DNA of 41,779 nt from Dehalococcoidia bacterium. GTDB lineage: Bacteria > Chloroflexota > Dehalococcoidia > SHYD01. Location: assembly GCA_009692945.1 (NCBI GenBank), contig SHYD01000016.1, positions 1 to 41,779 of the forward strand, read 5' to 3'. Below, piece after piece: positions 3,059 through 40,210 of this stretch (position 1 is its first letter; every line of letters starts with the position of its first letter). The notes under the pieces are model-generated. The model worked only from the letters and a program-made list of their open reading frames with translations. It searched no databases and had not been told where the DNA came from. Position numbers and translations under genes: made by a program.

Positions 3059-3532
3059 CTATTCCGGTTCCACCAGTTCGAGTTCGGTGGTGATGTCGAT
3101 CGCCGCCTTCACGCTGAGGTACATGGGGCAGAAGGGGGCGTGGAACCCGTGAACCCGCTCGGCGGTTTCCCACTGGTCCTTGGGCGCTTGCAGCCGGTAG
3201 TGGACGCGGATCCGCCGCACCACCAGCACGTTGCCCTCCTTCTCTACCTCGCCGGTGGCTTCTGAGGTGAGGTAGGGTTCGCCCGCCGGAATTTGACGCG
3301 CTTCCAGCGCGCCTCCAAAGGTTCCGGTCAGTCAGCCGGCGGTGGCGGCCACCAGGTAATCGAGGGTGGTCGAATGGGGCTGGTGGATATTCAGGTCGGT
3401 CCCGTAGTGCTGTGCCACCTCATCGTGGACGCCGAAGATCACGGTCTCGCCCATGGGGAGATGCGCCCGGCGCACCGGGCCCCGGACCCTCTCGATACGG
3501 ATCTTGGAACGGTAGACGACGGGATCCGGCAT
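3059..3532 (-). CDS. OsmC-family peroxidase, probable selenoprotein (in-frame TGA at the peroxidatic Cys)
   Basis: Read through one TGA, this gene encodes 157 residues of the OsmC/Ohr fold. It starts at the ATG 3530-3532 (minus) behind a GAGGAG site and ends at TAG 3059-3061. The TGA (3332-3334) is codon 67, inside LDYLVAATAG-U-LTGTFGGAL, where OsmC proteins carry their peroxidatic Cys. The second, resolving Cys is intact in HAPFCPMYLSVKAAIDI near the C terminus. All 90 codons after the TGA stay in frame with strong family similarity. A stem-loop meeting the bacterial SECIS rules follows the TGA (separate entry). OsmC enzymes reduce organic hydroperoxides; Sec would raise reactivity. The alternative is a simple TGC-to-TGA nonsense mutation. 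Confidence 0.72.
3286..3327 (-). promoter_or_regulatory. Candidate bacterial SECIS element
   Basis: Downstream of the TGA in the mRNA sense, GGCGCGCT (3306-3313) pairs with AGCGCGTC (3295-3302) over 8 bp including one G-U, closing a GGA loop (3303-3305). A second perfect 6-bp stem, CCGGAA (3322-3327) with TTCCGG (3286-3291), lies below it. The apical loop is 26 nt from the TGA and starts with G. Known bacterial SECIS elements have a 3-14 nt loop with G in its first two bases, 16-37 nt after the UGA. Caution: the stem overlaps codons for the conserved GALEAR, so part of it may be fixed by protein sequence. Confidence 0.6.
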
Positions 3533-3639
3533 GGTGTGCTCCTCGTATGGCCACAGATGTGCATCTTGCGCGCGCTGTCTCCATCGTAGAGTCACCGCAA
3601 TGGCCGTGGCAAGCGCGAACCATGCCCGGTGCATGGCCG

Positions 3640-3790
3640 GTATCTATTCAGTGTCAGGGGTTCGGCGGTATGAGCCGCTCCCCCCACCCCAGAAAAAGAA
3701 GAGAATTCTATGTGGGGGCACCCCCACTCCCCCGGCAGAGGGCTGCCGCCCTCGTGCACTCCCGCTTCTGAGCCGGCCGCCCCTCAATTC
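3640..3790 (+). repeat. Family A MITE-like repeat, copy A2
   Basis: It begins GTATCTATTCAGTGTCAGGG and has the purine run AGAAAAAGAAGAGAATTC, the GTGGGGGCACCCCCAC hairpin, the GGCAGAGGGCTGCC palindrome and the GTGCACTCCC arm. It ends near CCCCTCAATTCTG and contains no ORF. Confidence 0.85.
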
Positions 3791-3984: not shown

Positions 3985-5142
3985 ATGAACGTGAACAAAG
4001 ACATCGACCGCAGGGGATTCTTGACCGCCACGGGAGTGGCGCTCGCCGCCATGGCATGCGCACCTTCAGCGGCGCCCGCCCCGGCGGCGCCCGCTGCCGC
4101 CCCCGCGCCAGCCGCCGCCAAGGCGGCCTGGGAGGGCGAGTGGGAGAAATTGGTCGAGGCCGCCAAGAAAGAGGGTAAGCTTGCGGTGTTCACCCTCTCG
4201 GGCGCGGGCTACCGCAGTGCACTGGGCGAGTTCGAGAAGATGTTTGGCATCACGGTGGAGCACCAGGCCGAGAACTCTTCCTCCGTCTGGGTCCCCAAGA
4301 TGCAGAAGGAGCGCGAGGCCGGCCTCTACTCCTTCGACATCCTGGTGGTGCCGCCCAACAGCGCACTGATCCGGCTGAAACCGTCGGGCGCCTTCGACCC
4401 CATCCGTCCCCTGATCTTCCGGCCCGATGTATTGGACGACAAAGTTTGGCCGGACGGGTTCGACAACCAGTTCATGGACGCCGGGAAGTCGCTGGCTTTC
4501 GGTCACAGCATGGAAATCAACCACAACGTGGCCATCGACACCAACCAGGTGCAGCCCGATGAGATCAAGAGCATCCAGGACCTGCTGAACCCCAAGTGGA
4601 AGGGCAAGATGGTTATTGCCGACGCCCGTAGCGGCGCCACCTGGCTCTCGATGCAGGTGGTGCGCAGCCGGGTTCCGAACCCGGACGACTACATCAAGCG
4701 GCTGCTGGTGGACCAGCAACCCATGTTCATCCGGGACGACCGCCAGCGGGCCGAGACGGTGGTGCGGAGCCGCAACCCCATCGTGCTGGGCATCGTCTAC
4801 GCCACCATGAAGGAGTTCAACGACGCGGGCGTGGCCAACCACGTCAAGTTTCTGGACCTGCCGGACATGGACTACGCGGTCAGCTACACGGCGCTGTTGT
4901 ACAACAAGGCGCCTCATCCCAATGCGGCGAAGCTCTTCATCAACTGGTTTCTCACCAAGGAGGGCCAGACCATCTGGAGCAAGGCTATCCCCCTCAACAG
5001 CGCCCGGGCCGACGTCGAGATCGTCAATAACCTGGCCTCGGGGGCCCGTGGCACCAAGTACCACTTCATCTCCCGTGAGTCTGAATACGCCAAGCAGGAG
5101 GATACCCAGAAGTTCCTCAACAAGATGCTGGGGATCGAATGA
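3985..5142 (+). CDS. Extracellular solute-binding lipoprotein (Fe3+/polyamine-type ABC family)
   Basis: A 385-residue periplasmic-type binding protein. The N terminus has a twin-arginine pair (DRRGFLTATG, RR at 9-10) and a lipobox ending at Cys25 (LAAMAC), then an Ala/Pro-rich linker, so it is probably Tat-exported and lipid-anchored. The mature part resembles AfuA/FbpA-type binding proteins, with conserved LLNPKWKGKM, APHPNAAKLFINWFLTKEGQ and WSKAIPLNS. It is clearly paralogous to the gene at 23147-24304 and the pseudogene at 25070-26038. No permease or ATPase gene is nearby, so it is an orphan receptor here and its ligand is unknown. AAGGAGGG precedes the ATG. Confidence 0.88.
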   Translation: MNVNKDIDRRGFLTATGVALAAMACAPSAAPAPAAPAAAPAPAAAKAAWEGEWEKLVEAAKKEGKLAVFTLSGAGYRSALGEFEKMFGITVEHQAENSSSVWVPKMQKEREAGLYSFDILVVPPNSALIRLKPSGAFDPIRPLIFRPDVLDDKVWPDGFDNQFMDAGKSLAFGHSMEINHNVAIDTNQVQPDEIKSIQDLLNPKWKGKMVIADARSGATWLSMQVVRSRVPNPDDYIKRLLVDQQPMFIRDDRQRAETVVRSRNPIVLGIVYATMKEFNDAGVANHVKFLDLPDMDYAVSYTALLYNKAPHPNAAKLFINWFLTKEGQTIWSKAIPLNSARADVEIVNNLASGARGTKYHFISRESEYAKQEDTQKFLNKMLGIE

Positions 5143-6456: not shown

Positions 6457-6623
6457 GTATGAGTTCACCTTCATCGGCCGGCGGCGTTAGCCCGCCCCGC
6501 CCGCCCCCGAAAAAAGAGAGGGGAATTCGTTGTGTGGGGCACCCCCACTCCCCCGGCAGAGGGCTGCCGCCCTCGTGCACTCCCGCTCCCCAGCGCGACG
6601 GCCCCTCTACTGTGAACTCATAC
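6457..6623 (+). repeat. Family A MITE-like repeat with perfect 12-bp terminal inverted repeats (A3)
   Basis: This is the cleanest copy. It starts GTATGAGTTCAC (6457-6468) and ends with the exact inverse GTGAACTCATAC (6612-6623), 167 bp in all. Inside are GAAAAAAGAGAGGGGAATTC, the CACCCCCACTCCCCCGGCAG arm and the GGGCTGCCGCCCTC palindrome. It has no ORF. It separates the molybdoenzyme gene from its upstream minus-strand neighbour. Confidence 0.9.
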
Positions 6624-7065: not shown

Positions 7066-7226
7066 GGTTTGCTCAGCTGTTCAAAATCCGGGCGGGCCGG
7101 CATTAGCCACTCCCCGCACCCGAAGAAATAAAGAAGAGAATTCTCTGTGGGGGAGCACCCCCACGCCCCCGGCAAAGGGCTGCCGCCCTCATGCACTCCC
7201 GCTCCCGAACCCGATCGGCCCGCTCG
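7066..7226 (+). repeat. Family A repeat, copy A4 (degenerate ends)
   Basis: The inner parts are well preserved (AGAAGAGAATTCTCTGTGGG, CACCCCCACGCCCCCGGCAA, GGGCTGCCGCCCTC, GCACTCCCGC). The ends (CAGCTGTTCAAAATC and GTGAACACTCC) only loosely match the inverted-repeat consensus. Confidence 0.75.
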
Positions 7227-20966: not shown

Positions 20967-20999
20967 CCGGCGGATCGCACCTGTTCCGTGGCACGGCGC

Positions 21000-21209
21000 G
21001 AACAATTGGGTCAATCATTCGTGGTTTCAAAAATTGGGGTGACAAATTGGTTGCGGGCAAACACGGAAATCCAGGTGGTGTGGCAGTGGAATGACTACGA
21101 ACACATCATCCGAGACGAGCCGGACCTGGAGCGCATCCGGAGTTACATCGAGGAAAACCCGCTGCGCTGGAACGAGGATGACGAGAACCCCGGACGGGTG
21201 GCCACCTGA
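21000..21209 (+). pseudogene. REP-associated tyrosine transposase (RAYT) C-terminal remnant
   Basis: Only the last third of a TnpA-REP (Y1, HUH-type) transposase remains. In one frame it reads ARTIGSIIRGFK; one base later in an A5 run it shifts to KIGVTNWLRANTEIQ, VVWQWNDYEHIIRDEPDLER and IRSYIEENPLRWNEDDENP, the typical RAYT ending. The catalytic-Tyr region is kept in spirit (DYEHIIR) but the HUH part is missing, so it is inactive. RAYTs mobilise GTAG-headed REP palindromes, and one lies just upstream. Confidence 0.8.
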
Positions 21210-21283
21210 CCGGCGCCGGCGATGTGGTGGTGGGGGCACGTCGCCACGTGCCCCCACCACCCTGAAATCCGTGGGGATCCGTG

Positions 21284-21700: not shown

Positions 21701-21885
21701 TCAGCGTTGAGGACGTGGCGTGAGTCGGGAGCGGGAGTGCACGAGGGCGCCAGCCCTCTTGCTTGTCCTGAGCTCGTCGAAGGGCCGGGGGTGTGGGGGT
21801 CGGCCCCCACGAAGAATTCTCCCCCTTTTTTTCCGAGGTGGGGGGAGTGGGTCACCATGCCGGCCCCGTGACACTGACTTCGTAC
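21701..21885 (-). repeat. Family A repeat, copy A9
   Basis: In reverse orientation it shows the GGGAGTGCACGAGGGCGCCA arm, an inserted short CCTGAGCTCGTCGAAGGGC unit, GTGGGGGTCGGCCCCCAC, GAAGAATTCTCCCCC and the end CTGACTTCGTAC (21874-21885). Confidence 0.8.
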
Positions 21886-24544: not shown

Positions 24545-24708
24545 GTATGGGTTCACGTTCGAGGGCTGCCAGAATCAGGGGCGGGAGTGCACGAGGGCGG
24601 CAGCCCTCTGCCAGGGGTGCGGGGGTGCCCCCCGCACAGAATTCTCCCCTTTTTGCTGGGTTGGGGGAGTGGCTGATGCCGCCTGAACCCCAAAAACTGA
24701 ATGGATAC
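24545..24708 (-). repeat. Family A repeat, copy A10 (nested in B4)
   Basis: It starts GTATGGGTTCAC (24545-24556) and ends CTGAATGGATAC (24697-24708), with GGGAGTGCACGAGGGCGGCA, GCCCTCTGCC, GGGGTGCCCCCCGC and AGAATTCTCCCC inside. Confidence 0.85.
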
Positions 24709-24711
24709 GCT

Positions 24712-24830
24712 GATCTCACCCCCTTGATCCCTCGCTGCTCGAAGGAGCAGGGGTAGAAAGAAAGATGACGTGAGGGGGCACCCTCACACTCCCCGCCAGC
24801 GGGAGACCCGTTGGACACCCCTGGAGGAAA
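24712..24830 (+). repeat. Family B tail, copy B4 (right part)
   Basis: It shows CACCCCCTTGATCCCTC, a GGGGTAGAAAGAAAGATGA tract, then CACCCTCACACTCCCCGCCA, GCGGGAGACCCGTTGG and ACACCCCTGGAGG. The next reading frame starts about 20 bases later. Confidence 0.75.
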
Positions 24831-24850
24831 TGGGCGGATTGGAGACGAGC

Positions 24851-25083
24851 ATGTACCAAGGACAGCGACTCAACAAGTTGATCCACCTCTTGGAGACCGG
24901 TGCGGTGGCGTTTGGCGCTGTGGACATTCCCAACGGGAATTACGACGACCTCGAATTCGTCGCAGACGCGGGGTTCGACTTCGTTATGGTGGAGATGGAA
25001 CACGAAGGGTTCGACCTGCCGAGCCTCCGCCACTCGATGCTGTATCTGATGAACCGGCGTCGTATTGTGACCAGCGGAAGGGT
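24851..25083 (+). pseudogene. HpcH/HpaI aldolase N-terminal fragment
   Basis: ATG 24851 opens about 76 codons of the class II 2-oxo-acid aldolase family (HpcH/HpaI): NKLIHLLETGAVAFGAVDIP, GNYDDLEFVADAGFDFVMVE, MEHEGFDLPSLRHSMLYLM, NRRRIVTSGRVA. About 180 residues with the catalytic and metal site would normally follow, but they are replaced by solute-binding-protein sequence in another frame. It is a deletion remnant. A family B end lies just upstream. Confidence 0.8.
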
Positions 25084-26038
25084 CGCTCAGCGCGGTCACC
25101 TTCTCCGGAGGCGGCTACCGCAGGGCGCTCGACAGTTTCGAGCAGGCCTTCCCGGGCGTGCGTATCGAACAGGAAGCATCCGGCAGTGCGAGCATCCTGA
25201 TCCCGAAGTTGACCCAACAGCGCAACGCCGGAGTTTTCAGCTATGACGTGGGGTCTTCAGCACCGTATCGCTGCTGGCGAACCTCCAGCCGGTCGGCGCC
25301 TTCGATCCACTGCGACCGGCATAGATCCGCCCCGATATCACCGACGACCGCGGTTGGCGCTTCGGCTTCGAATCAGGGTGGGCAGACAATGAAAAGAAGT
25401 GGGTCTACGCCCCCATCGGGAATGCCGCGAGCGATGTGTGGGTCAACACCGACCTGGTCAAGGAAGGGGAGATACGGAGCGCCAAGGACCTCTTGGACCC
25501 AAAATGGCGCGGCCGCACCCTCTCTGCCGGCATCCGTACCGGCGGCGGCTTTGGGACGCTTGGAGCGGTGAGGAAGCAGTTGGGCGATACCGTGGTTAGG
25601 CAACTGCTGCAAGATCAGCAACTGACGGTTCGGCGGGACCGGGCCGATCTTGCCAGGGAGATGGTGCGTGGCACCTTCCCGATCTGCTTGGCCATGGAAC
25701 GGGCTGCCCTACAGGATTTCCTGGATCAGGGATTGGGCAAGAACTTGAAACGGATCGACCTGCCCGAAGCCGTACGGGTCACGGGCTATGGGATCTGGCT
25801 ATTCAACCGCGCCCCCCATCCCAACGCCGCCAAGCTCTTCGTCAATTGGTTCCTCGCCCAGCAGGGGCAGGAGGCGTGGTCGAAGGCGACCGGCGACCAC
25901 AGCCCTACGGGCGGACGTCGTCCCTGTCGACCCGTCGGGGATCCCGGATCCGAAACGCTCTTACATGTGGATGGCCCGCGAGAGCGATAACGCCTACCTC
26001 GAAGAGACCAGGAAATGGCTCGAAGAGATAACCAGGTA
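25070..26038 (+). pseudogene. Solute-binding protein pseudogene (paralogue of 3985 and 23147)
   Basis: The signal and lipobox are missing; homology starts at EGSLSAVTFSGGGYRRAL. It shifts frame near 25250, meets TAG at 25322-25324 (LRPA-stop-IRPDITDD), then runs through NEKKWVYAPIGNAASDVWVN, LLDPKWRGRTLSAGI and RAPHPNAAKLFVNWFLAQQG, and shifts again near 25905 before LRADVVPVDPSGIPD and the end. With a lost 5' end, two frameshifts and a stop it cannot make a product. It lies downstream of the aldolase fragment, with which it was joined by deletion, and ends at a strong terminator. Confidence 0.85.
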
Positions 26039-26047
26039 GGGAAGGGA

Positions 26048-37470: not shown

Positions 37471-37629
37471 GCAGGATTCACAATTGAGGCACTATCGGGC
37501 TCAGGATCGGGAGTGCATGAGGGCGGCAGCCCTCTGCCGGGGGGGGGTGCCTCCCACAGAGAATTCTCCTCTTTTTTCCGGGGTGGGGGGCGTGGTTCAT
37601 GCGGGCGGCCCCTGAGTCCGAACTCATAC
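37471..37629 (-). repeat. Family A repeat, copy A12
   Basis: Left end GCAGGATTCACAATTGAGG; right end GAACTCATAC (37620-37629). Inner parts are GGGAGTGCATGAGGGCGGCA, GCCCTCTGCCGGG and AGAGAATTCTCCTC. Confidence 0.85.
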
Positions 37630-39959: not shown

Positions 39960-40210
39960 GTATCTATTCAGTGTCAGGGGTTTGGAGGCTATGAGCCACT
40001 CCCCCGCCCCAGGAAAAAGAGGAGATTCTATGTGGGGGGCACCCCATAGGAGTGGGCAGGTTTCTCCTCGGACAACCTCGAAGGCTGTACTTCCCACCCA
40101 CCCACCCATGCCGTTTGTGTGTGGGGACACCCCACACCCCGGCAGAGGGCTGCCGCCCTCGTGCACTCCCACTTCTGAGCCCGGGCCGCCCCTCAACAGT
40201 GAATCCTTAC
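39960..40210 (+). repeat. Family A repeat, copy A15, with inner module
   Basis: Left end GTATCTATTCAG (39960-39971), right end GTGAATCCTTAC (40199-40210), 251 bases. It is longer than other copies because the 80-base module lies inside. Its left 22 bases match copy A2 exactly. Its right end matches the remnant before the antitoxin at 8984. Confidence 0.88.
40041..40124 (+). repeat. 80-base inner module, copy 2
   Basis: Second copy of the module at 13811-13890, about 90 percent identical by eye, placed at the same point inside the host family A element. Confidence 0.75.

What the first reader, a model, noticed from the sequence alone, without database searches (positions are those of the whole stretch)
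3059..3532. Probable selenocysteine-containing OsmC-like peroxidase with its own SECIS-like hairpin
Seen: a 158-codon frame is complete except for TGA at codon 67, exactly where OsmC proteins have the peroxidatic Cys (LDYLVAATAG-U-LTGTFGGAL). The resolving Cys remains (HAPFCPMYL), and all 90 later codons are intact. A stem-loop follows with a GGA apical loop 26 nt after the TGA, an 8-bp upper stem and a 6-bp lower stem. Known: bacterial SECIS elements have a 3-14 nt loop with G in the first two bases, 16-37 nt after UGA; Sec commonly replaces a redox Cys; OsmC-like selenoproteins are, as I recall, reported in selenoproteome surveys. Inference: this is a functional selenoprotein acting on hydroperoxides.
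Basis: partly seen in the sequence, partly recalled or inferred. Interest (0 to 1): 0.9.

Follow-up and report, generated by a model that had tools for sequence, protein, structure and literature searches.

The report
Selenocysteine OsmC-like redox enzyme
The gene encodes an OsmC/Ohr-fold redox enzyme whose UGA 'stop' codon almost certainly encodes selenocysteine at the active site; this selenoprotein kind has been on record since 2005, but here it proves widespread in the phylum Chloroflexota and almost always in the selenium form.

Summary
On the minus strand (3532 to 3059) a 157-residue OsmC-like frame is open except for TGA at codon 67. A 3-nt GGA apical loop on an 8-bp stem follows 26 nt later and meets all four published bacterial SECIS constraints. 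The same genome has tRNA-Sec(UCA), selB, and a selD that itself has an in-frame TGA at the usual Sec site. selA was not found in this 81%-complete assembly, but both same-family genomes have it. Homologues across Chloroflexota carry TGA at exactly this codon: 38 of 39 non-redundant sequences, the other being TGC. The downstream protein is conserved, including the second Cys. The hairpin shows compensatory changes, exceeds synonymous-codon expectation, and is lost in the Cys homologue. AlphaFold and Foldseek give the OsmC/Ohr fold; profile alignments put codon 67 on the catalytic Cys. So this is a real selenoprotein, not a pseudogene. Peroxidase activity is inferred. OsmC-like selenoproteins were reported in 2005 and 2008 from a handful of marine sequences, so this is a new, well-supported member of a known kind. 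The extra finding is a Sec-dominated clade across Chloroflexota with a U-[LM]-[TYA]-G-[TS] motif.

The parts
3059..3532 (-). OsmC-like selenoprotein gene: 157 residues with Sec at 67, stop TAG
   Evidence: Translation; Pfam OsmC PF02566 1.8e-10 over residues 57-150; homologues
3539..3544 (-). GAGGAG Shine-Dalgarno-like motif, 6 nt upstream of the ATG
   Evidence: Sequence
3332..3334 (-). TGA codon 67, read as selenocysteine at the position of the OsmC/Ohr catalytic Cys
   Evidence: TGA conserved at this codon in 38 of 39 non-redundant homologues, TGC in the other; profile alignment to PDB OsmC/Ohr catalytic Cys
3283..3331 (-). Bacterial SECIS-like element: upper stem 3313-3306 with 3302-3295, GGA apical loop 3305-3303, lower stem CCGGAA 3327-3322 with UUCCGG 3291-3286
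   Evidence: Fold; covariation; synonymous-codon null; bSECIS constraints in PMC13188914
3128..3130 (-). Codon for Cys135, the candidate resolving Cys (invariant in the aligned family, with Pro136)
   Evidence: Alignment A1; aligns with the second Cys of OsmC-like 4mh4

Best explanation
The locus is a functional, stand-alone bacterial selenoprotein gene of the OsmC/Ohr superfamily in a Chloroflexota genome. SelB, tRNA-Sec(UCA) and the in-frame SECIS hairpin recode UGA67 as selenocysteine (supported by anatomy plus comparative data; not shown biochemically). The selenolate at 67, in the long central helix, takes the place of the peroxidatic Cys. It is expected to reduce an (organic) hydroperoxide to form Se-OH, then form a selenenyl-sulfide with Cys135 that a thiol reductant such as lipoyl proteins or dihydrolipoamide reopens, as in Ohr (inference from family chemistry).
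For: Own genome: tRNA-Sec 70.7 bits, over the Rfam cut-off, ARAGORN tRNA-SeC anticodon tca; selB 619 aa, 347.7 bits; selD 377 bits with its own in-frame TGA at CAGU. Homologues: every hit in the class carries exactly one TGA. Of nine loci from genome contigs, seven have TGA and two TGC at this codon. Over all loci read, 46 of 48 copies, or 38 of 39 non-redundant ones, have TGA and the rest TGC. Downstream codons are constrained like the upstream ones: pN about 0.2-0.35 against pS about 0.5-0.9 on both sides for the nearer homologues. Hairpin: 99.3% of cells paired, two pairs with compensatory changes, sliding controls at most 66%. Observed mean stem is 6.4 bp against 2.3 bp under synonymous recoding; the Cys homologue has 0 bp. 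It meets all four bSECIS constraints. Fold: pLDDT 91.4, pTM 0.83; 63 PDB matches at E<=0.001, the listed ones nearly all OsmC/Ohr. The active-site pair aligns with known OsmC/Ohr Cys.
Against: selA was not found in this 81%-complete, 99-contig genome, although 90 of 148 class relatives including both same-family genomes have it. selB is common in the phylum anyway (307 of 400), so its co-occurrence with the TGA gene (31 of 35) is only weakly informative, and four TGA-bearing drafts show no selB. One relative, L083, has TGG at the site together with a frame break in its N-terminal part. The Fisher P values treat related sequences as independent. No protein-level or activity data exist.
Confidence: 0.9

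Rival explanations
1. Pseudogene or sequencing error: a former Cys codon TGC/TGT mutated or misread to TGA, and the protein is no longer made full length.
For: Single-genome view only: a TGA in a draft assembly. Some relatives do carry broken copies (L083 with a frame break, G253 and G373 frame-broken copies).
Against: The same TGA occurs in 38 non-redundant homologues from many families of the phylum with the rest of the frame intact; the downstream sequence is under purifying constraint; selB, tRNA-Sec and a Sec-type selD are in the genome.
Confidence: 0.03
2. UGA is reassigned to Trp or another residue in this lineage, so codon 67 is not Sec.
For: One relative (L083) has TGG at this codon.
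Against: Exactly one TGA per homologue, always at the catalytic Cys position; TGA is the terminal stop of several of the homologous genes; tRNA-Sec and selB are present; the intact non-TGA homologues have Cys; L083 is otherwise damaged.
Confidence: 0.01
3. It is a true selenoprotein but not a hydroperoxide peroxidase: an OsmC-like (COG1765/YhfA-type) thiol/selenol redox protein with another substrate.
For: Sequence similarity to characterised Ohr/OsmC is weak (best E 0.0016-1.2 against PDB with a family profile), and the closest structures are uncharacterised OsmC-like proteins (2onf, 2opl). No conserved neighbour genes point to a pathway.
Against: The fold and both active-site positions match Ohr/OsmC, and Sec at the peroxidatic position suits peroxide chemistry.
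Confidence: 0.25

Closest known systems
OsmC-like selenoprotein family of the Sargasso Sea and GOS surveys (PF02566/COG1765; PMC1088965, PMC2398784, listed again in PMC9312934 and PMC13188914)
   Same: OsmC-family protein with UGA/Sec at the redox Cys, bacterial SECIS in frame, Cys homologues known.
   Different: Only 3 and 5 sequences were reported, with redox motif given as UxxT. Here the motif is U-[LM]-[TYA]-G-[TS], Thr/Ser at +4. The published example sequences could not be fetched, so whether this is the same subgroup is undecided.
Ohr / OsmC organic hydroperoxide resistance proteins (e.g. 4mh4, 1usp, 1qwi, 6ebg)
   Same: Fold (TM 0.6-0.75 by query length), catalytic residue and second Cys in equivalent places.
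   Different: Sec instead of Cys at the catalytic position; 8-16% sequence identity.
Cys-form OsmC paralogue in the same genome (G000 C10:7693-7956)
   Same: OsmC Pfam domain.
   Different: Ordinary Cys (AACLV) and no TGA; not recovered by the P0002 search, so a separate subfamily.

Membership tests
Bacterial selenoprotein | In-frame TGA aligned with Cys in homologues (Sec/Cys pair) | tested here: met
   TGC in L039, L041 and L067 at the same codon; aligns with catalytic Cys of OsmC/Ohr
Bacterial selenoprotein | TGA conserved in at least two independent sequences with conserved downstream protein | tested here: met
   38 non-redundant TGA sequences; constraint downstream
Bacterial selenoprotein | bSECIS: 3-9 nt loop, 4-16 bp upper stem, G in first two loop bases, 16-37 nt from UGA, MFE <= -7.5 | tested here: met
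   3 nt, 7-8 bp, GG, 26 nt, -23.7 kcal/mol
Bacterial selenoprotein | Genome has selB, tRNA-Sec and selD | tested here: met
Bacterial selenoprotein | Genome has selA | tested here: inconclusive
   Not found in the 81%-complete genome; present in both same-family genomes and 90 of 148 relatives
Bacterial selenoprotein | Sec shown in the protein | not testable with these tools
   Needs mass spectrometry or 75Se labelling
OsmC (PF02566) | Pfam score above gathering cut-off | tested here: met
   41.6 bits against 27.5
OsmC (PF02566) | OsmC/Ohr fold with two-Cys active site | tested here: met
   Sec67 and Cys135 at the two positions
Ohr/OsmC peroxidase (function) | Thiol-dependent hydroperoxide reduction | not testable with these tools
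   Enzyme assay needed
Published OsmC-like selenoprotein subgroup | UxxT motif | tested here: not met
   Here U-L-T-G-T and relatives U-[LM]-[TYA]-G-[TS]: +3 is Gly in every homologue read across it. The published sequences could not be compared directly, so only the motif as printed fails

The most novel reading that the evidence does not exclude
This is a distinct, previously undescribed OsmC subfamily, widespread in Chloroflexota (38 of 400 sampled genomes), in which selenocysteine is the normal state and Cys the rare exception: a Sec-dominant hydroperoxidase clade with its own U-x-x-G-[TS] motif.
Probability: 0.5. Interest if true: 0.45.

Novelty: new member of a known kind. Interest (0 to 1): 0.38.

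Why it matters
Gene callers cut such genes in two or drop them: the listed ORFs in this window end at or start after the TGA. Whole Chloroflexota lineages may therefore appear to lack this enzyme. Published evidence for Sec in OsmC proteins rested on a handful of marine reads. A set of dozens of full-length Sec genes with a Cys counterpart makes the usual question, what Sec buys over Cys in a peroxidase, directly testable in one family.

Tried and rejected
Reading the + strand at the given coordinates gave nothing; the gene is on the minus strand. NCBIfam, PHROGs and Rfam gave no match. A PDB sequence search at E<=0.001 gave none, and only a relaxed search gave the OsmC/Ohr alignments. A conserved gene neighbourhood was looked for and not found. 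selB co-occurrence was tested as evidence and is weak because selB is common in the phylum. A tree to ask whether Sec or Cys is ancestral is not decisive: one full-length Cys row, on a long branch. The hairpin on its own was rejected as evidence because similar hairpins occur by chance after other TGAs in this GC-rich window.

Full report
WHAT IS THERE. The feature is on the minus strand of the window. ATG at 3532 opens a frame of 157 codons ending in TAG at 3061-3059, interrupted only by TGA at codon 67 (3334-3332). A GAGGAG motif precedes the ATG. With TGA read as a residue, the protein hits Pfam OsmC (PF02566) at 1.8e-10 over residues 57-150. Residue 67 sits in LDYLVAATAG-U-LTGTFGGAL, and HAPFCPMYL follows at 131-139. 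Neighbours are a cupin (2434-2844, +) and a solute-binding protein (3985-5142, +). No shared neighbour was seen across homologous loci, so the gene looks stand-alone.

SEC MACHINERY. The window is contig C57 of a 2.50-Mb, 99-contig, 81%-complete genome. That genome encodes tRNA-Sec with anticodon UCA (70.7 bits over the Rfam cut-off, ARAGORN). It has a full-length selB of 619 aa (347.7 bits). It has a selD scoring 377 bits with one in-frame TGA, at SCAGUAAK near its N-terminus, the known Sec site of SelD (general knowledge). UGA decoding as Sec is therefore expected in this organism independently of the OsmC gene. selA was not detected, but 90 of 148 class relatives, including both genomes of the same family, have selA over cut-off. 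The gap is most simply assembly incompleteness.

CONSERVATION OF THE TGA. A protein search with stops read through found homologues in 13 of 148 class genomes (this one included), each with exactly one TGA. A scan of 84,980 species genomes gave nine loci from Anaerolineae, SAR202 and other Chloroflexota: seven with TGA and two with TGC at the same codon. A profile search of 400 phylum genomes found 38 with the gene; 35 of these have the TGA form. Reading the codon in every fetched locus gave TGA in 46 of 48 copies, and in 38 of 39 sequences after removing near-duplicates; the alternatives there are TGC. One further relative has TGG, but its N-terminal part is out of frame. The invariant residues of the alignment include position 67 and Cys135-Pro136. 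Codons after the TGA are constrained like those before it: against nearer homologues pN is about 0.2-0.35 and pS about 0.5-0.9 on both sides (synonymous sites are near saturation, so ratios are approximate).

SECIS. After TGA the RNA folds at -23.7 kcal/mol (z = -3.0, 0 of 200 shuffles as low). The published bacterial SECIS rules are: loop 3-9 nt, upper stem 4-16 bp, G in the first two loop positions, 16-37 nt from UGA, MFE <= -7.5 (PMC13188914). Here the values are 3 nt, 8 bp, GG, 26 nt and -23.7. Across 20 diverse homologues the 7 core pairs are 99.3% paired, with both-side changes at two pairs (C-G to U-A; G-C to C-G); sliding the partner by 1-3 columns gives 19-66%. Recoding the same peptides with synonymous codons gives a mean stem of 2.3 bp, against 6.4 bp observed; the Cys homologue L039 has 0 bp. 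One distant clade (L021-L028) keeps a hairpin three bases closer to the TGA. A caution: many TGAs in this GC-rich window are followed by hairpins as long, so the structure counts only together with conservation.

FOLD AND MECHANISM. AlphaFold2 on 13 homologues gives pLDDT 91.4, pTM 0.83, with residue 67 in the long central helix 56-78. Foldseek finds 63 PDB chains at E<=0.001, the listed ones essentially all OsmC or Ohr (TM 0.6-0.75). Profile alignment places Sec67 on the catalytic Cys (SACFIGA in 4mh4) and Cys135 on the second Cys (TCPYSKA). The best reading is a two-residue selenol/thiol peroxidase: Sec67 attacks a hydroperoxide, a selenenyl-sulfide forms with Cys135, and a cellular dithiol regenerates it. 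The recoding step is well supported by comparative evidence. The enzymology is inferred from the family; sequence distance from characterised Ohr is large, so the substrate is open.

KNOWN OR NEW. OsmC-like selenoproteins were first reported with 3 sequences from the Sargasso Sea (PMC1088965), then 5 in GOS (PMC2398784), and remain on the 2022 and 2026 lists with motif UxxT. The paper searches found no account of the family in Chloroflexota (open-access library only). The motif here has Gly at +3 and Thr/Ser at +4 in nearly every homologue read (Val at +4 in the Cys form L039), which differs from UxxT as printed, but the published sequences could not be fetched for comparison. The finding is therefore filed as a new member of a known kind, with the possibility of a distinct Sec-dominated clade.

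CO-OCCURRENCE. 12 of 13 TGA-bearing class genomes have selB over cut-off, against 95 of 148 overall. In the phylum sample it is 31 of 35 against 307 of 400. The direction is right but the test is weak. The five exceptions are draft genomes.

Noticed in passing
window 3734-3762, 6555-6583, 7171-7199, 21734-21762, 24584-24612, 37510-37538, 40141-40169: A dispersed intergenic repeat with core GGCAGAGGGCTGCCGCCCTCGTGCACTCC occurs 7 times in the window on both strands (0 expected in shuffles), next to other shared blocks between genes.
   Followed up: partly
window 20988-21275: A 73-aa ORF (REQLGQSFVVSKIG...ENPLRWNEDD) that by eye resembles the end of a REP-associated tyrosine transposase, though Pfam gave no hit, is followed by a long hairpin (GTGGTGGGGGCACGTCGCCACGTGCCCCCACCAC).
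   Followed up: partly
window 24770-26039: By eye, the start of an aldolase-like ORF runs into a frame-broken solute-binding protein, suggesting a decayed or fused gene.
   Followed up: no
L047 3538-6024: Next to the Sec-type selD lie an ORF that looks like a TusA-type sulfur carrier and a rhodanese-like sulfurtransferase, a possible selenium/sulfur-handling cluster.
   Followed up: no
L032 1501-1794 (G028): A second, very divergent OsmC-like gene in one genome (LVLALAGULAGTLQG) also has TGA at the same position.
   Followed up: partly
L083 (G420), L084 (G253), L085 (G373): Broken copies of the Sec-OsmC gene: TGG with an N-terminal frame break in L083, frame-broken copies in L084 and L085; the gene is sometimes lost by decay rather than by a change to Cys.
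   Followed up: partly
L021-L028 (one family of the class): The SECIS-like hairpin has moved one codon towards the TGA (loop GUU or GAU, about 23 nt after TGA) while the protein is conserved.
   Followed up: partly
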